A DNA stretch of 64,000 nt from Anthracocystis setariae (Eukaryota > Basidiomycota > Ustilaginomycetes > Ustilaginales > Ustilaginaceae): assembly GCA_928724745.1 (NCBI GenBank), contig CAKMXJ010000002.1, forward strand, positions 1,550,001 through 1,614,000, read 5' to 3'. The notes beneath the pieces were generated by a model. The model was given only the letters and a program-made list of their open reading frames with translations. It ran no database searches and had not been told where the DNA came from. Shown here piece after piece: positions 1-28,866 of this stretch (within the stretch, counting starts at the first letter, position 1; each line of letters starts with the position of its first letter). The position numbers and the translations under genes were made by a program.

Positions 1-1752
1 GGCTCGGCAGCTGCAAAGTCACACAGAATCGAAGGGATCAAGGCGTCGCAAGGCGAGTGTTCCCCCATGATTCCAGCTCTTCCATTGGGCTCGACCACGA
101 TGGTCAGCGCCTTGTCGAACCACCGGTTGTGTCCGCCTCGTCCAGCACCGCTGACATTGCGCGCCAGCGCATCCACCCAGACCGGCGTCGACTCGTGCGA
201 AGGCGCAGGGTGTTCCGACGAGAGCGCCAGCACACTAGAGTCGAGCGATAGACACAGCAGACTGTCCTCGATCGAATTGATCGTCTTGCGGTTCACCGGC
301 GAGACGCTAAGCAGGTGCTCTCGTGTCTGTGCAGAAGCAGCGAGCGCAACAAAGCGTAAGCTTGGTTGGTCAGTCAACAAAAGAATCAGAGTCGCACTTG
401 AGCGCAAACGGAAGCACCTACCTGAGTCCACGTGTCTCGGTTGTCCGAGCTAAGCACACCCACACCGGCACCGTCAGCCTTTCTTGCATCGGCTACAATG
501 TCCCAAAGTGCCTTTTCGATCGCATTGACGCCAAGCAAGGTTGCGTCCTTGCGCAGCACCTCGAGCTCGTAGTAGTTGTCACGAGCGATCACCGTAATGT
601 GTCGCGATGGCGCAGGGTGTGGAGTGGCGGTGTTCCAATCGTGAGGAAGTGCGGGGATACGTGTGATTCCGAACAATCTGCGAGCGGGACGATTGAACCA
701 GCGACCTTAAAGAGTCAGTTGGGAAAATGTTGGCAAAACAGCCGAGAACAAAGGAGGGCTAACGTCAGCAAGCTGCTCGTCACTCACCGTGTGTACTGGT
801 GCATGCAGAACGCACCAGCTCGGGACGTGTCCGGCATGATGTCCTCGCTACGAGGAATCAATGTTAGCAAGGGCAAGGGAACAAGAAAACAAAGGCAAAG
901 GAAAACGAGATGGTCAGCAAAACGGTCGTACGTCATAAGTAGGCCACCTCGCCTGTCCTGTCAGGGATACATACTCATCCAAACGCTTCTTGAACTGAAG
1001 GAATCGCGAAGTGAGCCATGCACCACGTCGGATACCCCAAGCGGCATCGTCCCAGTTTTGAGAACCGAGACCACGGATGGGGTAGGCGTCGTGACCCTTG
1101 TGCTCGCCGAGGTCTGTGGGCATGTTCTTGTCGTGGGTAAACATGAGCCACCAGTTGCTGTTGATCATCAGAGGCACGCGCCACTCATGGTAAGCCTTCT
1201 GCAACCACCATCGGTCGTCGAGCCAGTTGTTGTCGGTGGTACGGTCGACATCGATCAGTCGCTGCTGAAGCTTGTGGCCCAGACCACCTTGAGCGAGGAA
1301 TTCCTGGACCCACTGCTTGCGCTTGGCGAGCTCCTTGTCAGCAGTGGAGCCGTCCAACTTGCCCTGCTCTTCGAGCTGACGCAGGAAGGGCGAAAGAGAC
1401 TTGAGGTACTTTTCAAAAGTCTGCTCGAGTGTTGGCACGGGCAGACGAGGAAGGGTACGCTGCTGGCTGAACGTCTTGGGCTGAGTGCCCGGGGTACCGC
1501 GCCATGGTGTCAGAGCAAACATGGTGGGTGTGGTGGTGTGTAGCGTCCTTGTAGATGCAGTAAGGCGGGGGATTGCGACGATTGCGCTCGCAAGAAGTGG
1601 TCGAGAATTTGTAAGGCGGCTAGATTTGAGAAGCTGTGAAGGCAAAAAGAGAAGAAACACAGGCGGTGAGCTGTTGGATTGATCGACCTTCCATCTTGTA
1701 ATGAGAACGATCCACTTACCTCGAACCCTTTTCGTTGTCTGCTCAGCAACAT
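1..1752 (-). CDS. Carnitine O-acetyltransferase, 3' part outside window
   Basis: Transfers acetyl groups between CoA and carnitine, moving acetyl units between peroxisome, cytosol and mitochondrion. I read five exons on the minus strand: 1752-1720, 1633-975, 847-788, 677-422 and 326-1 (open at the window edge). All introns are GT-AG and the phases match across every junction. The joined product keeps family landmarks: LPRLPVPTLEQTFEKYL near residue 70, RAGAFCMHQYTRLFGITRIP across exons 3-4, and NGRAGIMGEHSPCDA in exon 5. The first ATG (1752) gives an Arg/Ser/Thr-rich, nearly acid-free leader of 48 residues; a second in-frame ATG at 1522 (MFALTPW) sits in a much better context (CACCATG) and would skip that leader. 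This is the layout expected for a mitochondrial plus peroxisomal pair from one gene. The C-terminus, where a peroxisomal signal would sit, is outside the window. Confidence 0.9.
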
Positions 1753-17773: not shown

Positions 17774-19022
17774 AGAGTAGCATTTGTGAATCACATCGGT
17801 CAGGCTGTGCGGTTCGGATGACGCCGTTGACGGTGGGGAAGAAAGTCAGCGCCAAGAAGCGCTACAACAGTAAGTCTAGGTCAGTTGCAACTCAGGCTTT
17901 GTTGCTATCATGCCTGCTATATAAAATGATGTGTTCCAAAGGACAGTGCTGTATACAGTAGTAGAAGGCGTACACCGTTTCGTGCTCATGTTATAGAATT
18001 GGCCAAGAGTGGACCGACCCAACAAAGCAGCAAAAAAGCGTTCCGGACCAGCTGCTCCTGGCTGGAGCCAAGATTGTTTCGAACACCTTCGATAGCATCC
18101 ATCAACACGCAACGCAAGGAAAGAGCCCAAGTATAGAGCCCAAGTATAGCCAACTGCGAGTCGCGAATCGGTTGCAGCTAGCTGCTACGCTCGGCTAGAC
18201 CGACATCCTGAGACATTCGAATCGAGCCGGCTCCAATTTCGCACTACTACTACTATACTACTACTACTCTTGATTCTTTGTCTCGCTGTTACCCGTCTCG
18301 GATGGTACAGTATTGTAGAGTTGCACACCGTTGCATTGCGCCGACATGGCCACCATACGTTAGCGCGCTTCGGACTTAACTCCCGATCTTGCCGTGCAGC
18401 CGTTCCGATCAAAATCTTTTTGCTGCCGGCTGCTTGCACCGACAAGTGTACCGTAGCACGCCTAGACAATTTGGCTGCACTGACTGACCTGTGGTGAATC
18501 TTGGCCGCCCCTTGCTCTCTTGACACTGAGCCAAACGACATCCTTTGGCGGTTTCAATATCTCGCTCGATACATGGGTTTCGCCATCGCGCAACGCAGAA
18601 TGAACAGCATATCGACCGCTACGCCAACAATCTGAAAGGGTCTCCTGCGCAACACGTACTCATTCAGCTCTAGCCATCGGAAGCATACGAAAGCCATGCT
18701 TTGTCAGAAACGGTCCGTCCGGGTAGCAAACTCGGGAATCGGAATTGGATTTTGTGAGCTTTTTCGCCAATTTTTTCGAAAATTTCCCGGAAGGTACGCT
18801 GTAACTCTGTCACCGTTTTGCTGCCACTCACTGAGGGCCTCCACCCAAACACGAAAGGCGAACTACAGTAAAAATTAAAGGGTTCAGCACCGCTCAACCT
18901 CACCGAGCTTCTTGCAATACCCATCCACCGTCTCACCTTTGCATCTACGCACAACATAGATCACACCTTAATCTTGGAGAACAGCACTCAACGTATCATC
19001 CCTACTGGAATTGGAGCCCATC

Positions 19023-20183
19023 ATGAACCCCGCAGAGATTGTTCGCGCAATTCGCGCCCAGTCTGCTTCCGAACGAAACCCATACAACGATAACCAGGCT
19101 GCCGTTGCTGGTCTCATGGCGTACAAGCTCTCCCAACATCGCGATGAAATCCTAGCCTCCATGCGAACCGGTTCATCAGCTTCAGCTTCTGCATCCGCTT
19201 CTTCACCTCCTCCCGGCTGTCCTATGCATGCCAGTGGCAGCCAAGCCCCAGTCCAGACACCTCCACCAAAGCCCACTCCTCCCAAAATGGTGGCTTCGTC
19301 CGGAGGTCAATGTCCCATCCCTCACCAAGACCGAGATGCGTACCTCGCATCGAAGTCCGCACAGCATGGTACCTCTGGTTCTATGGCACCCGCTTCATCT
19401 TCATCCGACTCATCTTCAAAGCCATGGTCCTCGACACTCAACCCTCTCAATATGATGCCTTCGCTCGGACAAGGTCAAGCTCCCGAACAACAGACGGTGC
19501 TCTCCACAGAACGAGTGGTTTCTTCCATCCCTCGTTCGCGATCGTCTGCTGCACCCGGCGCTTCTCCATATGACCCACCTTCAGCCTGTCCCGTCAAGCA
19601 CGACAGCAGCAAGCCGTCCGAGGAGCAGACTGAAAAGTGGGAATACCCTTCTCCTCAGCAATTCTACAACGCACTCGTCCGCAAGGGCTGGGAAACACCA
19701 GAGGAACACGTTGAGACCATGGTCATGGTTCACAACTTTCTCAACGAGCAAGCTTGGCTCGAGGTGCTCGAGTGGGAGAAGCTTGCCGGTGCCGATTCGT
19801 CTCGCGCCGAACTTGCGCGGTTCCAGGGCAAGCCAGGTACCATGACGCCGAAAGCACGTCTGTTCCAATGGATGGCCAAGATCATGCCCAACACGTTCAG
19901 CTCCGATGCGCCCTTTGATCGTCATGACTGGATCGTCAGGAGACCCGATCAGAACGGCAAGGAGGTGAGGTATGTGATCGACTACTATAGCGTGCCTGAT
20001 GATCCGGATAAGGACGAACCCGAATTTGTGCTCGATGTCAGACCAGCGTTGGACTCGTTCGAGAGTTTCAGCGTTAGAATGCAAAAGGGCTTTCAAGAGT
20101 GGAAGCAGGGTCAGGGATTCTTCACCGCTTTCGCTGCTGCCGAAAATGTACACCACAACAAAGATTCTGCGACAACAGCTTGA
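19023..20183 (+). CDS. CYC3: Holocytochrome c synthase (cytochrome c heme lyase)
   Basis: Attaches heme covalently to apocytochrome c in the mitochondrial intermembrane space. Intronless, 386 residues, starting at the first ATG (MNPAEIVRAIRAQ). The catalytic C-terminal half is clear: WEYPSPQQFYNALVRKGW, HNFLNEQAWLEVLEWE with the expected heme-ligand His 237, PFDRHDWIVRRP and VRYVIDYY. The N-terminal half contains three Cys-Pro motifs (Cys 66, Cys 97, Cys 189), the heme-regulatory-type motifs of the family. The N-terminus is longer than in yeast and Ser/Pro-rich. It ends convergently 229 bases from the MCU-COQ2 gene. Confidence 0.93.
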   Translation: MNPAEIVRAIRAQSASERNPYNDNQAAVAGLMAYKLSQHRDEILASMRTGSSASASASASSPPPGCPMHASGSQAPVQTPPPKPTPPKMVASSGGQCPIPHQDRDAYLASKSAQHGTSGSMAPASSSSDSSSKPWSSTLNPLNMMPSLGQGQAPEQQTVLSTERVVSSIPRSRSSAAPGASPYDPPSACPVKHDSSKPSEEQTEKWEYPSPQQFYNALVRKGWETPEEHVETMVMVHNFLNEQAWLEVLEWEKLAGADSSRAELARFQGKPGTMTPKARLFQWMAKIMPNTFSSDAPFDRHDWIVRRPDQNGKEVRYVIDYYSVPDDPDKDEPEFVLDVRPALDSFESFSVRMQKGFQEWKQGQGFFTAFAAAENVHHNKDSATTA

Positions 20184-20412: not shown

Positions 20413-23412
20413 TTACGAATTGAGGTAGAGCCAGGCAGTGTAGTCTGCGATGAGACCTGAGAAGATGATGCAACCTAAGGTGGTGTTTGAGCAAAATTTG
20501 CGCCAGCAATCGGGGCGATCGTTTAAGTTGACTGTAAAGATCTGCCACGCGAGGTGACCAGCCGCTCCTATGAGCGCGACGCAGAAGAACGGATGGTGAT
20601 GCGCCAACGTCTCCACCATCGTCGAGCATGTCGAAAGCGATTGCAGTGTAGAGGGTGAGAAAATCACGTCGCCAACCGAGACCGGTTCAAGGCGCGACAA
20701 AATCTCAGCTGCCGTCGGTGCCGGTGGGATAGCCTTAGATGCACTGTAACTGAACAGGCCGATGATTCCAGTGGAGAAGGCCGAAAGGACCGGCTTGGTC
20801 TTGTCGCCAAACAAGAGCGCCGTCGATTTGACGCCAGCATGCACGTCATCCGTCTTATCTTGGTGGGCGTAGATAGTATCGTACACCAACGTCCAACAGA
20901 TCGACCCTGCATACAGCGGAAGCACAACAGCCCAATCCACGGCACCGGCAACAGCAGACCAACCCAACATGGCACCCCAATTAAACGCCAAACCCAGCAC
21001 AAATTGCGGCCAGTACGTCACCCTCTTCATCAACGGATACAGCACCACAACCCCCAGCGAGCTCGCTCCTAACGCGATGCTGTACAGATTCAAATTCACC
21101 AGCACCGCCAGTCCGATACTCAGCTGAATACCCAGGAATGAGAGCGCCTGGAAGTGCGTGATGTCACCTGCCGCAAGCGGTCTCGCCTTGGTCCGCTCGA
21201 CCATGCGGTCCATCTTGACATCCCACATGTCATTGATCGTGCAACCGGCCCCGCGCATCACGATGGCGCCCACGCCAAACAGCACCGTATACAATAGAGG
21301 CACCGTGAAGTCAAGTCCAAGAGTGTGCGAGGCAAGCACAATCGACCACGCGCAAGGCCAGTACAGCAGCCACGTGCCAATCGGCTTGTCAATGCGCATC
21401 AGAGCTAGGTACGGCTTGATGCTAAACGGCTTCTTGGTCGGCAGCGTCGAAGTCTCTACCGCATCTACGGTGGCCTTGGCTGCGTCCTTTTGAGGACCTG
21501 CAGTGCTGGGATTCGAGCCCGTGCTGCTACTGTACCGCCTGACACCTTCGACATGCGTGACTTTACCTCGGCCGTATATCATCATACCCGAGGAGCGAGC
21601 AGATGTCGAGTATTGACGACGACCGTCCGTCTGTGCGATCTTCTTCTTTTTGGGCCTCAGCTTCGAGTGCTCCCTTTGCACATTGTCCGGCTGACCATCG
21701 CCATCCTTGTCTTCGGCCTCGTGTGTGGACGATCCCACCCCATCGCGCTTTCCGTCCCCCTCCCCCTTCTCATCCGCTTCCTCCTCGTCCTTCAATTCGC
21801 GCTTGGAAGATTGGAAGCTGGCGGCCTCCTGCTTTCGGATGATCTTGAGCGCCTGTTTGTTCTGCTTGCCCGCTTTGGTTTCTCCCTGATCCCATTCGAG
21901 GTCGTAGTCTTCGGCGACCTTTTTGATCGTCCTGCGAAGGTCCTTGACTTCCTCGATGAGGTCTTGGTATCGTTCTACGTTGAAGCCCTTCTCGATATAG
22001 AGCTTCTGTTGACGCCTCGACGTGGTCTCGTTCAGCACGGCACGATACGACACCTCGCGGTTGTGGATCAGGAACCAGATATAACCACCTAGGATGGTAC
22101 CGAGACCCGTGAGATACGTGACGGGTTCCATGACGTCCCATCCGAGCTCAGTGCAGAAGGTGAGGAAGGCGACGGAGCCCCACCAGGCGCTCAAGATGGC
22201 TACGCCAGCCAGCGAGATCCGCTTGGTGCCTGCGTGGGCGATGCGGTCACATTCTGCTTTGAGCTTGACGAGGTGTTCGATCTGCTCTGTTTTGGCGTAC
22301 AAGCTGGCACGCAGGAAGCGCGTGCGATCTTCGAAGGAGGGGACAGTGACATGGACGTTGCGTTCTCCGATGCGGATGACGAAGGAACCGATACGGGCGG
22401 CGTCGCGCAGGAAATCGCCGATTCCCGTCGCAGGCGACCAGCGCTTGCCATCAGCAGCACGGGTATGAAACGAGATGGGTGGGTCACCGAGTGGATCGAG
22501 GAAGCCTTCTCGGAGGAGCATTTGACGCATCTCGAGCTGCTCCTTGGTCAGCTTGAGACGCTTGTCCTTGCGTTCCGGCGAGGATCGTGGACCTTTAGGA
22601 ATGACGACTCTATCCTTGTCGTCGGTTTTGTGTACGGCGTCGTTCTCCTCTTCAAGCTGATACTTGCTGGGCTCGGGACTTGGACCTTCGGCACGAATGA
22701 GGTTGGCAATGTAGCTGAGCGGCTGAGCGCTATGCAGCAGGAATACAACGCTGTGCGCGGGCGCGTCTGCATCGTATTCGTCCGCCTCGACGTCCGAAGG
22801 TTCGCCATTTTCGGGCCCATGAAGGTTTGAATGCGGACGATGATTGACCTGAGATACGGGTGGCCCTGGCGTCTCAGCCGCCTGCTCCCACGGTTGTTGC
22901 GATACGTCGTGGCGCTCTGCCTCGTCGACTTTGGATGCTTGCTTGCCGTTCTGACGTTCGGCTATTGCTTTTGCAGATGAATGTTTGGAGGAAGGGGAGG
23001 ATGGGTCGGAGCTAGGAGGCTGCAAGGGGAGCGTGAGTTTGAAGAGAGAGGATTTGGTGAAGGCAAGGTAGCCTTGATCGCGTTCGCGGCCTAGTTTGGG
23101 GTTTCGATGATGTTGGCTGTTTTCGTCTGCGGGCGGCGCCGAGCTGGGATAGGTAGTCCTAACTCCTGAGGGGGTTGTAGCGTAGAATCGCAGATTCAGC
23201 AAAGCATCTGCGGTAGTTGCGTTCGGACAACGAAGCCGTGACGGCGTCTGACATGGTCTAGCAAAGTGATATCGCCGGACTATGGGCACTGCAGATGTTT
23301 GAAGCGCAGAGCTGATGAGGGATCCCCTCTCTGATGCGCCAAACCATGTTGGGGCAAGAGAGGTCGACACTGCCGAGGCTCGCAACGTACGAAAGGACAT
23401 GCTAGTCACCAT
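20413..23412 (-). CDS. MCU-COQ2 single ORF: calcium uniporter joined to 4-hydroxybenzoate polyprenyltransferase
   Basis: One uninterrupted 999-codon frame with two mitochondrial inner-membrane proteins. Residues 1-90 look like a mitochondrial presequence (Arg/Ser-rich, few acids). Residues about 215-520 are the calcium uniporter MCU: an N-terminal domain ([31 protein letters not shown]), a coiled segment, WWGSV, and the pore signature WDVMEPVTY with Asp 426 and Glu 429 between two hydrophobic helices. A charged linker (about 530-600) leads to [19 protein letters not shown], a presequence-like stretch with two in-frame Met codons at 610-611 (21585-21580). Residues about 650-999 are COQ2: [17 protein letters not shown], first Asp motif [10 protein letters not shown] from Asn 727, second DKTDDVHAG near 850, and several membrane helices. 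From Met 610 the COQ2 part would be 390 residues, a normal free-standing length. It may be a fusion, a protein cleaved in mitochondria, or two overlapping transcription units. Confidence 0.9.
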
Positions 23413-24195: not shown

Positions 24196-24324
24196 ATGTC
24201 TGGTCAAGGCGGTACACAATCTCCCCCTCTTCAGGGTCATGAAAACGACCCCGTCGGTCAGGTAAGTTAGGATCCCCTTGCTCCAATCTTTTCACCGCAG
24301 CACCAACTGAAAGCCATTATTGCT

Positions 24325-24377
<53 letters not shown>

Positions 24378-26724: not shown

Positions 26725-28866
26725 ATGCCACTCAAGCCGCTTACCCCGCCACTTCGCTTCTCCACTGTCGCATTCTCGCCTGTCGATGAACCTCAGTATA
26801 GCGAAGTCTCGTGTCCTCGATCGCACCCGCATCATCGCGAATCCGTCTATCGTGGAGCGTATCCGAAACCGCGCAATCTCTACTTCCTGTCTCGCTTGCA
26901 TCTCCGAACCGTACTCAGCCTTACTCCAAGATCGCTTGACAATGATGCAGCCCTGACTACGTGGTCATCGCACAGCGAACCATCCGGAGTCTCTCCCGCG
27001 AAACTGGCATCCGAACATGGCATTCACCTTGTGCACGTACGATGCGAGAAGCCCAAAGACGAGAGCGGCGGTCTGACTCGCGAAGGCGCGGTTCGTGCCC
27101 TCTCGATTCTACTCGATCGTCGAAACCATCCAATCTATGTGCATTGCTTGGATGGCGTCGAGGTAACGAGCACCCTGGTTGCGTGTATGAGGAAAGTACA
27201 GGCATGGTCGACGCCTGCGATCCTCGCTGAGCTCGGAAGGGCGTTGAGGGATTCAAACTCTTCGGAATGGACCGAAGTGCCTGCCCACTTATCTTCGTTC
27301 GTCAACAAATTCGGCCAACCCGATGGAATCAGGCTTCCTCCTCGAAATCACATTCCTTCCTGGCTCTGGCCCGCACCGAATCCGCTTTCCATTCTGGCCG
27401 ACCCTTATGCGTGGGCGACCTCGTCACAGCCTTCCACTTCAGCCAATGGCGCCAAAGAAAGCAGTTCAAGAAACACGAGTGGCGATGCTGCCATGTCCAG
27501 AAGCCCAGGGGCACCGCAAGCCCCTTACGACGCTGCGCAGCGAACGTCGCCACAACCACCAATATCCCAGCCCATTCGGCGAGACCGGCAGCTTCCGATC
27601 CACCATCCCACGCTCAAACTCCACTTTGAAGTCGATCCGAATCTTCCGCCCGAACCCGCGCCCTCGGTAGCATCGACTTCTGCCTCCACTGCTGCATCAT
27701 CAACCTCACAGCGCTCCATGACACCCTCTCGTCCATCGCATCTCCATTCTCGCACGTCATCGCACAATAGCACCGCAAGTCTTCGCAGCCCGCCTCATTC
27801 TCGCCCCTCGAGTCGAGCTGGGCGTTCCCTGATCGGCACTTCGCATGCGCTTGCCAGCAGCAGATCTTCATCGATTGCCCCCGAGGAGGGACGCAGAGCC
27901 GCAAGTGGGTCAGGCTCGTCGCTGATCAGCCCCAGTCCCGCGCCTTTCGGTGGCTCATCCAATGCGATACCCTCGATCGCTGCTTTCCTCGAAGATCAAG
28001 CGCGAACGCATGACCTTCTCAGCAGTTCGCAGTATTTGGGTAGCGAGTCGCCCACGCGTCGTCCGCGCTCCAATCTCAGCCTTGACACGTTTGCGAACCA
28101 AGGTTCTTCGCTGTTTGGACCTGGCTATATTGCTTTGCCGACGGATAAGAGCCCGATAGAAGCAGACGAGCTCGATGTCAGTACTCCACGTGCTCGACCT
28201 ACAACGCTTCATAATTTCAACATCGGTATCGCCGGGACGATTTTTCATCATGATGATGACATTACCGACCATGAAGGCGAGAGTTCGCAGCTGGGTGCCA
28301 GTCGGACCCAAGCATCGAGCTCGACTATGCCAGCCGTGCGAGAGGGGAGAGTGGTGGTACCGCTTGCCAAGAGGAGACAGGTGCTGGATGAAGATGCCGA
28401 AGGCGAGCAAACTCCGACCAAGGGTAGCACTTTGGTGAAGGGACAGCACCGACTTGGCGGGGGGGCACAGCAGAGCGGAAGCGTGGTGGGCCAAGATCAT
28501 GCGGCGATTAACCGTGTTCCGTTTGCGGTTGAGTCTGGGGCTCAATTAGAGCGCGTTTTGGATACCACGCGGATTGCGGGTAGTGACGGACAAGAGCAAA
28601 GTCTCGATGAAGCAGTAGAAGGTAGCTTTGATAGGTTGAGTGGTAGCGAACACGGATCGGCCATCGAGGATAGTGAGGAAGATGGTAACGTCGATGTTGA
28701 AGAAGTCGGACGGGAGGATGTAGAGGAGACAGTTGAGGAAGAGGAGGAAGAGGAAGAAGAAGAGGAGGAAGAGGAAGAGGAGGAGGAAGAGGAGGAAGAG
28801 GAAGATGAGGAAGATGAGGATGAAGATGACCTTGCACTTGAAGCGCTGGACTTGGAGGGCTACTAA
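26725..28866 (+). CDS. Oca/Siw14-like atypical phosphatase-fold protein, catalytic Arg absent
   Basis: Intronless, 713 residues. Residues about 35-200 resemble the Oca/Siw14 plant-and-fungi atypical dual-specificity phosphatase domain: VYRGAYPKPRNLYFLSRLHL followed by RTVLSLTP, then GIHLVHVRCEKPKDE, and the P-loop region IYVHCLDGVEVTS. The Cys (141) and Gly of the CX5R loop are kept, but position 147, where the catalytic Arg should be, is Val. This resembles the Oca4/Oca6 branch rather than Siw14, whose members hydrolyse inositol pyrophosphates. The remaining 500 residues are Ser-rich and end in a long Glu/Asp run (GAGGAA repeats at 28735-28840). The role is unknown; a regulatory or scaffold role is inference. 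Confidence 0.75.
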   Translation: MPLKPLTPPLRFSTVAFSPVDEPQYSEVSCPRSHPHHRESVYRGAYPKPRNLYFLSRLHLRTVLSLTPRSLDNDAALTTWSSHSEPSGVSPAKLASEHGIHLVHVRCEKPKDESGGLTREGAVRALSILLDRRNHPIYVHCLDGVEVTSTLVACMRKVQAWSTPAILAELGRALRDSNSSEWTEVPAHLSSFVNKFGQPDGIRLPPRNHIPSWLWPAPNPLSILADPYAWATSSQPSTSANGAKESSSRNTSGDAAMSRSPGAPQAPYDAAQRTSPQPPISQPIRRDRQLPIHHPTLKLHFEVDPNLPPEPAPSVASTSASTAASSTSQRSMTPSRPSHLHSRTSSHNSTASLRSPPHSRPSSRAGRSLIGTSHALASSRSSSIAPEEGRRAASGSGSSLISPSPAPFGGSSNAIPSIAAFLEDQARTHDLLSSSQYLGSESPTRRPRSNLSLDTFANQGSSLFGPGYIALPTDKSPIEADELDVSTPRARPTTLHNFNIGIAGTIFHHDDDITDHEGESSQLGASRTQASSSTMPAVREGRVVVPLAKRRQVLDEDAEGEQTPTKGSTLVKGQHRLGGGAQQSGSVVGQDHAAINRVPFAVESGAQLERVLDTTRIAGSDGQEQSLDEAVEGSFDRLSGSEHGSAIEDSEEDGNVDVEEVGREDVEETVEEEEEEEEEEEEEEEEEEEEEEEDEEDEDEDDLALEALDLEGY

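What the first reader, a model, noticed from the sequence alone, without database searches (positions are those of the whole stretch)
20413..23412. Calcium uniporter and COQ2 share one continuous 999-codon frame
MCU (pore motif WDVMEP, Asp 426/Glu 429) and COQ2 (Asp-rich motifs from Asn 727 and near 850) are normally separate inner-membrane proteins. Here no stop and no obvious intron separates them. The junction carries [14 protein letters not shown] and soon after VRRYSSST, both resembling mitochondrial processing sites, and two Met codons (610-611) that would start a COQ2 of normal length with its own presequence. Three readings: a true fusion; a mitochondrial polyprotein cleaved after import; or a nested transcript for COQ2 inside the MCU ORF. 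Any of these would couple calcium uptake to ubiquinone synthesis.
Basis: partly seen in the sequence, partly recalled or inferred. Interest (0 to 1): 0.87.

Follow-up and report, generated by a model that had tools for sequence, protein, structure and literature searches.

The report
Smut mitochondrial polyprotein joins MCU and COQ2
In smut fungi one gene encodes both a calcium-uniporter-like membrane protein and the enzyme COQ2 of ubiquinone synthesis, most likely as a single chain that mitochondria cut in two at a conserved pair of cleavage sites.

Summary
Window 20413-23412 (-) is one 999-codon frame with an MCU domain (360-485) and a COQ2/UbiA domain (684-887). It is not a local accident: 20 database proteins (12 with smut species names, 8 unnamed) carry both domains in the same order, while Sympodiomycopsis has two separate genes. 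The roughly 100-residue linker is predicted disordered and evolves fast, except for two motifs of the MPP/Icp55 type (RR[HQ][YF]ST.AR and R.[YF]SSS; 14 of 22 sequences have a strict pair, 18-26 residues apart) that bound a presequence-like stretch. The same twin pattern sits in the junction of ARG5,6, a known MPP-cut polyprotein, in the same genome. The nested-transcript reading is weak: Met 610-611 occurs only in this window, and 9 of 21 proteins have no Met between the two domains. "Coupling calcium uptake" is doubtful, because the dikaryan "MCU" is the paralogue MCUP, reported without mitochondrial Ca2+ uptake. Elsewhere in this genome a 1531-codon frame joins CCDC90/MCUR1-like, gamma-butyrobetaine-dioxygenase-like and COX10 proteins. 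Cleavage itself is inferred, not shown.

The parts
20413..23412 (-). Joined ORF, 999 codons, MCU-family unit followed by COQ2 unit
   Evidence: same architecture in 20 other proteins
23179..23190 (-). N-terminal R-x-Y/A site (RFYA, residues 75-78), probable end of the import presequence
   Evidence: R-x-Y-A near the N-terminus in 16 of 21 aligned proteins; residues 1-77 hold 13.2 K+R and 1.7 D+E per 100 over the 21 rows
21637..23181 (-). MCU-family (MCUP-type) unit, residues about 78-592, with an acidic C-terminal tail like the one that ends the stand-alone MCU of Sympodiomycopsis (P0022)
   Evidence: best PDB matches are fungal MCU chains
21958..22335 (-). Pfam MCU domain (PF04678)
22123..22140 (-). 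Pore motif WDVMEP, residues 425-430
   Evidence: W425, D426, M428, E429 and P430 invariant in 21 proteins
21445..21747 (-). Disordered linker, residues 556-656
   Evidence: pLDDT under 50 nearly throughout, no helix or strand, in the 99-sequence model
21595..21621 (-). Junction site 1, RRQYSTSAR (residues 598-606), MPP/Icp55-type motif
   Evidence: mean column entropy 1.16 bits against 2.38 in the spacer; similar RPYSTLAR in the ARG5,6 junction of the same genome
21580..21585 (-).
21520..21543 (-). Junction site 2, VRRYSSST (residues 624-631), MPP/Icp55-type motif
   Evidence: R625 identical in the 21 aligned proteins; mean column entropy 1.40 bits
21436..21519 (-). Variable linker between site 2 and mature COQ2, residues 632-659
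   Evidence: mean entropy 2.61 bits
20413..21435 (-). COQ2 unit, residues 660-999 plus stop
20752..21363 (-). Pfam UbiA domain (PF01040); besides COX10 the only UbiA match reported in the genome
21220..21234 (-). First Asp-rich motif NDMWD, residues 727-731
   Evidence: N727, D728, M729, W730 and D731 invariant in 21 proteins
20845..20859 (-). Second Asp-rich motif DKTDD, residues 852-856
   Evidence: D852, K853, D855 and D856 invariant in 21 proteins

Best explanation
The gene is a mitochondrial polyprotein gene. One mRNA is translated into one 999-residue precursor, and the N-terminal presequence (residues 1 to about 77) takes it into mitochondria. In the matrix the processing peptidase MPP, followed by Icp55, removes the presequence at RFY/A. 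It also cuts the disordered linker at site 1 (RQY/S, Tyr 601) and site 2 (RRY/S, Tyr 627), releasing an MCUP-type membrane protein and a mature COQ2 and discarding about 26 residues, probably the relic of the old COQ2 presequence. The fusion arose once, before Violaceomycetales and Ustilaginales split, by loss of the MCU stop codon, and ties the two products to equal synthesis. Shown here: the joined frame, its conservation, one locus found for each of the two proteins, the conserved twin motif, its match to ARG5,6, and the predicted linker disorder. Inferred: the single transcript, the cleavage, the peptidases, the route of origin and equal synthesis.
For: 20 of 78 proteins found with the whole ORF carry both domains in this order; P0223, a fragment, is a 22nd row across the junction. 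Strict motif R.[YFL][SA] in the junction: at least one in 21 of 22 and at least two in 14 of 22, 36 in all against 4.8 expected from its density in the rest of the same proteins. With [SAHC] as last residue 38 in all, against 0.11-0.33 per junction after shuffling. In 13 other long ORFs of the window the strict motif occurs 18 times in 11,738 residues, with one pair 15-45 apart. Entropy: site 1 1.16, site 2 1.40, spacer 2.38, linker 2.61, MCU core 0.21, COQ2 0.29 bits. The stretch between the sites holds 20.9 K+R and 1.1 D+E per 100, against 14.9 and 36.2 in the MCU tail and 7.9 and 8.9 in the linker. ARG5,6 of the same genome has RPYSTLAR at 522 and RGYAT at 543 between kinase and reductase; MPP cuts Arg5,6 internally in yeast (Friedl et al. 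2020 as reported in PMC8847149, passages). In the whole genome one codon pattern for R-x-[YF]-S-T-x-A-R occurs 7 times, and only these two junctions lie in long frames. 9 of 21 proteins have no Met between MCU core and COQ2 helix 1. One MCU locus and one COQ2 locus found in the genome. Linker 556-656 predicted disordered.
Against: No protein, transcript or cleavage data were available. Eight of 22 sequences lack the strict pair: P0002, P0003, P0006, P0011, P0014, P0018 and P0019 have one strict site each and Violaceomyces (P0020) none, only RGFH under the wider motif. The alignment of P0018-P0020 in the junction is poor. The motif alphabet was chosen after seeing the alignment, and the genome-wide pattern after seeing the ARG5,6 junction. 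The maximum 18-residue hydrophobic moment of the junction (0.26-0.50) was computed without a null. The related proteins are database predictions whose DNA I could not read. Ustilago maydis itself was not among the names listed. A few COQ2-only pieces from smut-like sources exist (P0079-P0081, P0093, P0127) that I read as truncated calls.
Confidence: 0.8

Rival explanations
1. A true, uncut fusion: MCUP and COQ2 stay on one chain, so that each MCUP tetramer would carry four COQ2 domains on flexible matrix tethers.
For: One frame, conserved in 20 other proteins. Topology allows it: the MCU C-terminus and the UbiA N-terminus are both expected in the matrix (recalled). The folded parts are separated by a disordered tether.
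Against: A plain tether would not need two conserved arginine motifs bounding a nearly acid-free, presequence-like stretch, nor share them with ARG5,6.
Confidence: 0.11
2. Two mRNAs from one frame: a nested promoter gives a COQ2 transcript starting at Met 610-611, and a shorter MCU mRNA ends by internal polyadenylation.
For: Met 610-611 lie upstream of site 2 here. P0007 and P0010, which group with the window in the COQ2 tree (90 SH-aLRT), have a Met shortly before site 1. In this one species an extra nested start cannot be excluded.
Against: Only 4 of 21 proteins (window, P0006, P0007, P0010) have any Met between MCU core and site 2, at three different places; 9 of 21 have none up to COQ2 helix 1. 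The motif pair is conserved although the Met codons are not. A stop-free MCU mRNA would need a special ending in each species.
Confidence: 0.06
3. Artefact: assembly error, hidden intron or gene-model fusion.
For: Databases do hold COQ2 joined to unrelated domains, e.g. P0030, P0033, P0057, probably gene-model errors. Contig 170187 gives separate MCU and COQ2 pieces (P0195; P0081).
Against: The frame is open in the raw window, junction codon usage follows the frame, no intron with the signals tested was found, and 20 other proteins show the same join. P0195 leaves the conserved frame before the junction, so that contig looks frame-shifted rather than split (by reading).
Confidence: 0.02

Closest known systems
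ARG5,6 (acetylglutamate kinase / acetylglutamyl-phosphate reductase), a fungal mitochondrial polyprotein cut by MPP
   Same: Two mitochondrial proteins in one frame; junction with twin R-x-Y/[SA] sites about 20 residues apart; RPYSTLAR against RQYSTSAR in the same genome.
   Different: ARG5,6 joins two successive enzymes of one pathway. MCU-COQ2 joins two polytopic inner-membrane proteins with no shared pathway known to me, and was seen only in Ustilaginomycetes and unnamed relatives.
Other composite mitochondrial precursors: Atp25, S. pombe Etp1, Rsm22-Cox11 and SPAC22A12.08c, rice RPS14 (PMC8847149, passages); rice S14 with SDHB (PMC10450427, passages)
   Same: Composite precursors reported to hold internal targeting-like sequences and MPP sites.
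   Different: Different partners; none of those named in these passages is MCU or COQ2.
Fungal MCU structures 6dnf, 6dt0, 6d7w, 6c5w
   Same: Best PDB matches by sequence (5e-66 to 8e-58) and by fold to the N-terminal unit.
   Different: Those are stand-alone proteins. Human MCU (6k7x, 6o58) matches far more weakly (3e-9 to 5e-9), fitting the MCUP class of Pittis et al. 2020 (PMC7423614).
COQ2 / UbiA 4-hydroxybenzoate polyprenyltransferase
   Same: TIGR01474 above cut-off; both Asp-rich motifs invariant in the 21.
   Different: A separate protein in Tilletia, Tilletiaria, Exobasidium, Sympodiomycopsis, Malassezia and other fungi listed.

Membership tests
MPP-processed mitochondrial polyprotein (ARG5,6 type) | Two mitochondrial proteins in one uninterrupted frame | tested here: met
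   20 further proteins
MPP-processed mitochondrial polyprotein (ARG5,6 type) | MPP/Icp55-type motif R-x-[YFL]/[SA] in the junction, conserved | tested here: met
   21 of 22 with at least one, 14 of 22 with two; entropy dip. P0020 has none
MPP-processed mitochondrial polyprotein (ARG5,6 type) | Internal presequence-like composition | tested here: met
   20.9 K+R and 1.1 D+E per 100 between the sites; 16 of 21 rows without D or E. No trained predictor of targeting signals was available
MPP-processed mitochondrial polyprotein (ARG5,6 type) | Actual cleavage by MPP into separate proteins | not testable with these tools
   needs proteomics or an in vitro MPP assay
MCU family | Pfam MCU domain with W-D-x-M-E-P pore motif | tested here: met
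Functional Ca2+ uniporter (MCU with EMRE and MICU1) | EMRE present in the genome | tested here: inconclusive
   PF10161: no match in the genome, but no control genome rang either
Functional Ca2+ uniporter (MCU with EMRE and MICU1) | Member of the animal-like MCU clade rather than fungal MCUP | tested here: inconclusive
   Much closer to fungal than to human MCU by score (199-226 against about 38-39 bits), and fungal chains come first by fold; no tree with animal MCU was built
Functional Ca2+ uniporter (MCU with EMRE and MICU1) | MICU1 present in the genome | not tested
   no search was made
COQ2 | UbiA fold with both Asp-rich motifs and COQ2 equivalog score | tested here: met

The most novel reading that the evidence does not exclude
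Smuts use a set of mitochondrial polyproteins cut by a shared twin-site signal, including a three-protein one (CCDC90/MCUR1-like, gamma-butyrobetaine-dioxygenase-like, COX10). Placing the two uniporter-related orphans, MCUP and a CCDC90 protein, each on one chain with a UbiA-family prenyltransferase (COQ2, COX10) reflects a real functional partnership, making MCUP a partner or regulator of quinone synthesis rather than a Ca2+ channel.
Probability: 0.15. Interest if true: 0.82.

Novelty: new member of a known kind. Interest (0 to 1): 0.6.

Why it matters
It adds a conserved pair of inner-membrane proteins to the short list of mitochondrial polyproteins and gives a natural case of internal MPP sites that can be followed across a fungal class. 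In these smuts COQ2 and MCU cannot be knocked out, tagged or transcript-quantified independently without knowing this. The names shown for the joined proteins mention COQ2 or nothing, never MCU, and the COQ2 label is also borne by an MCU-only protein of Ceraceosorus (P0196). It also gives a testable lead to what the fungal MCU paralogue does, a question left open in PMC7423614.

Tried and rejected
Nested start at Met 610-611: rejected as a general mechanism. Hidden in-frame intron in the junction: none with the signals tested. Local gene-model artefact: rejected by conservation. P0079, P0080, P0081, P0093 and P0127 are COQ2-only pieces that start at, inside or after the second COQ2 helix. I treat them as truncated calls, but cannot exclude that some come from species with a broken or split gene; P0093 falls inside the fused clade in the COQ2 tree. 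The first AlphaFold model, from the 21 close sequences, was poor (pLDDT 42.2) and was not used. Viral-contig scan for related DNA: nothing. EMRE search: uninformative. Protein lists were capped: the best 120 of 7992 and of 382 were shown. Literature: no paper in the held library has all of 'mitochondrial calcium uniporter', 'COQ2', 'Ustilago' or all of 'CCDC90', 'COX10', 'fung'. The listings for uniporter with Ustilago maydis (6 papers), calcium uniporter / Ustilagin / gene fusion (15 of 54 listed) and polyprotein / tandem protein / processing peptidase / smut (15 listed) show no title or abstract start reporting this fusion; those papers were not opened, except PMC8847149 (passages). Subscription papers are mostly not held.
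Full report
WHAT IS THERE. Window 20413-23412 on the minus strand is a single ATG-started open frame of 999 codons. Pfam places an MCU domain at residues 360-485 (3.1e-29) and a UbiA domain at 684-887 (3.2e-47). NCBIfam places the second unit above its cut-off in 4-hydroxybenzoate octaprenyltransferase, i.e. COQ2. An AlphaFold model from 99 sequences (mean pLDDT 72.2) gives ordered MCU and UbiA parts and leaves residues 1-104 and 556-656 almost wholly below 50, with no helix or strand before residue 107 or between 549 and 665. Foldseek matches the model to fungal MCU chains (6d7w, 6dt0, 6c5w, 6dnf) and to UbiA homologues (4od4, 6m31). In the 21.5-Mb genome one MCU locus and two UbiA loci, this one and COX10, were found. 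The tool calls such counts lower bounds, but the joined gene appears to be the only source of both proteins.

IS IT CHANCE OR ARTEFACT? Noncoding-like stretches of this window stay stop-free over 100 codons in 3.5% of cases (86 of 2444), so one species alone would not be convincing. But 20 of the 78 proteins found with the whole ORF carry both domains in the same order at 52-80% identity. Twelve are named: Ustilago trichophora, U. bromivora, U. loliicola, Sporisorium scitamineum, S. reilianum, S. graminicola, Melanopsichium pennsylvanicum, Kalmanozyma brasiliensis, Moesziomyces aphidis, Pseudozyma hubeiensis, Testicularia cyperi and Violaceomyces palustris. Eight (source 'lgn') are unnamed. 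Testicularia is in Ustilaginales and Violaceomyces in Violaceomycetales of the same class; that the other ten belong to Ustilaginales is recalled. U. maydis is not among the names shown. Codon usage follows the frame across the junction and no intron with the signals tested lies there. The DNA of these relatives was not available, so their frames are known only as predicted proteins.

WHERE THE GENES ARE SEPARATE. Sympodiomycopsis kandeliae (Exobasidiomycetes) has an MCU of 557 aa and a COQ2 of 465 aa, each on one contig, of different lengths (P0022, P0090). Stand-alone COQ2 is listed for Tilletia, Tilletiaria, Exobasidium, Malassezia and Ceraceosorus, and stand-alone MCU for Ceraceosorus, Acaromyces and Parajaminaea. 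The MCUs P0022 (Sympodiomycopsis), P0023 and P0024 (unnamed) end in DEDGDGxPD followed by 17 residues, and the joined proteins keep a like tail ([10 protein letters not shown]) before the junction; P0196 and P0207 lack it. In quick trees (SH-aLRT only) the 21 joined MCU halves form one group among 33 hand-chosen single MCUs (89). The 21 joined COQ2 halves form one group among 25 single ones except that P0093, a 265-aa piece lacking the start of COQ2, falls inside. A single origin before the split of Violaceomycetales and Ustilaginales is the simplest reading.

THE JUNCTION. Between the MCU tail and COQ2 the sequence changes quickly, except at two places. Site 1 is RR[HQ][YF]ST.AR (window 598-606), site 2 is R.[YF]SSS (625-630). 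Mean column entropy over 21 proteins is 1.16 bits at site 1, 1.40 at site 2, 2.38 in the spacer and 2.61 in the linker after site 2, against 0.21 and 0.29 in the MCU core and COQ2. R625 is identical in the 21. With the strict motif R.[YFL][SA], 21 of 22 sequences (21 plus the fragment P0223) have at least one and 14 of 22 at least two in the junction, 36 in total against 4.8 expected from the density in the rest of the same proteins. With the looser set [SAHC] it is 22 and 15 of 22, 38 in all, against 0.11-0.33 per junction after shuffling. Where two strict sites exist they are 18-26 residues apart (positions; P0004 has a third). In 13 other long ORFs of the window the strict motif occurs 18 times in 11,738 residues, with one pair 15-45 apart. 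The stretch between the sites is basic and nearly free of acids (20.9 K+R and 1.1 D+E per 100 residues; 16 of 21 rows have no D or E), like the N-terminal presequence (13.2 and 1.7) and unlike its flanks. Such motifs are read as an MPP cut followed by Icp55 trimming, RX(F/Y/I/L) / (S/A)(S/T) for the plant enzyme in a review that calls it remarkably similar to yeast and mammals (PMC8847149, passages). Seven of 22 stand-alone fungal COQ2 proteins examined have the strict motif 31-60 residues before the D-K-P-I-G anchor, so site 2 is plausibly the old COQ2 presequence cleavage site. Limits: the motif alphabet was set after looking at the alignment; the sequences are related; eight of 22 lack the strict pair (P0002, P0003, P0006, P0011, P0014, P0018 and P0019 have one strict site, P0020 of Violaceomyces none), and the junctions of P0018-P0020 align poorly.

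INTERNAL POSITIVE CONTROL. ARG5,6 is a natural polyprotein that MPP cuts at an internal site in yeast (Friedl et al. 2020, not held; as reported in PMC8847149 and PMC10450427, passages). In this genome it lies on C3 (L008, a 687-codon frame that ends inside the reductase, presumably at an intron). Its kinase match ends at residue 496 and the reductase match begins at 564; the junction reads RPYSTLAR at 522 and RGYAT at 543. Seeing this, I searched the whole genome for one codon pattern of R-x-[YF]-S-T-x-A-R: 7 matches, control pattern 1. The same 7 came back with the reverse complement. Two of the seven lie deep in long coding frames, MCU-COQ2 and ARG5,6; the other five lie in stop-to-stop frames of 107, 98, 85, 28 and 8 codons. 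The pattern was chosen with both junctions in view and covers only some codons, so this shows rarity and likeness, not an unbiased discovery.

THE THREE READINGS. Polyprotein (0.8): explains the frame, the paired sites, the presequence-like stretch and the likeness to ARG5,6. Uncut fusion (0.11): explains the frame and the tether but not the sites. Nested transcript (0.06): among 21 proteins the Met codons 610-611 occur only in the window. Nine of 21 have no Met at all between the MCU core and COQ2 helix 1 (P0223 has none either, by reading), and only 4 of 21 (window, P0006, P0007, P0010) have one before site 2, at three different places. In this one species an extra nested start cannot be excluded.

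WHAT THE MCU HALF PROBABLY IS NOT. The best PDB matches are fungal MCUs (226 to 199 bits); human MCU (6k7x, 6o58) reaches 38-39 bits (species named). Pittis et al. 2020 (PMC7423614, abstract and passages) separate fungal MCUP from animal MCU and report no mitochondrial Ca2+ uptake for the MCUPs tested; I recall, without having looked it up, that some structural papers reported Ca2+ flux through purified fungal MCUs. No tree with animal MCUs was made here, so MCUP membership rests on scores, fold ranking and taxonomy. A link between calcium uptake and ubiquinone synthesis is therefore not supported; a link in gene dosage is.

A SECOND CASE OUTSIDE THE WINDOW. The only other UbiA gene found, COX10, also ends a very long frame: G000:C12 (L004 1492-6087, +), 1531 codons counted from a TTG, first ATG at codon 16, with a CCDC90-like domain (308-515), a TauD domain nearest to gamma-butyrobetaine dioxygenase but below that model's cut-off (843-1101), and heme o synthase (1215-1498, TIGR01473 above cut-off). 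Its junctions read RRQFSNN (591) and RRRFGSS (631), then RRGIHTT (1129) and RSFSTSS (1144); only RQFS and RSFS meet the strict motif, one per junction. No Met lies between 1063 and 1233, so COX10 has no AUG of its own before its first helix; the dioxygenase could start at several Met codons between 571 and 626. A second CCDC90-like gene stands alone on C10, in a 330-codon frame. Three other mitochondrial families checked as a small base rate lie in frames too short for such a join: COX15 593, COX11 443 plus a second piece, COQ4 325 codons. Human MCUR1 has yeast homologues Put6/Put7 that act in proline metabolism, with conflicting reports on complex IV (PMC7519068, passages), so joining a CCDC90 protein to COX10 is suggestive only.

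NOVELTY. Mitochondrial polyproteins cut by MPP are a known kind. This is a new, conserved member with unusual partners, hidden by names that mention COQ2 alone or nothing. I found no report in listings from the held open library; subscription papers are mostly not covered.

Noticed in passing
L004 1492-6087 (+) = G000:C12, outside the window: 1531-codon open frame joining a CCDC90/MCUR1-like protein, a gamma-butyrobetaine-dioxygenase-like protein and COX10, with one strict R-x-F/S motif and one looser motif in each junction; candidate three-protein mitochondrial polyprotein.
   Followed up: partly
L008 1730-3793 (-) = G000:C3, outside the window: ARG5,6 of this genome shows twin sites RPYSTLAR and RGYAT 21 residues apart in its junction; used as positive control.
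   Followed up: yes
window 19011-20183 (+): Convergent neighbour whose CPMH/CPIPH/CPVKH repeats and C-terminal part look like cytochrome c heme lyase (recalled, not searched): another mitochondrial gene tail-to-tail with COQ2.
   Followed up: no
P0196 and P0201: An MCU-only protein of Ceraceosorus bombacis is named 'related to coq2', and an MCU-only jgi protein '4-hydroxybenzoate polyprenyltransferase'; the labels were probably copied from the joined smut protein.
   Followed up: no
P0093: 265-aa COQ2 piece of unknown source groups inside the joined clade; it may come from a species with a truncated, intron-bearing or split gene.
   Followed up: partly
window 24326-24375: A run of 50 T inside what looks like an intron of a small gene starting near 24196 (+).
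   Followed up: no
window 26725-28866 (+): Tyrosine-phosphatase-like ORF with a long Glu/Asp-rich C-terminal tail.
   Followed up: no
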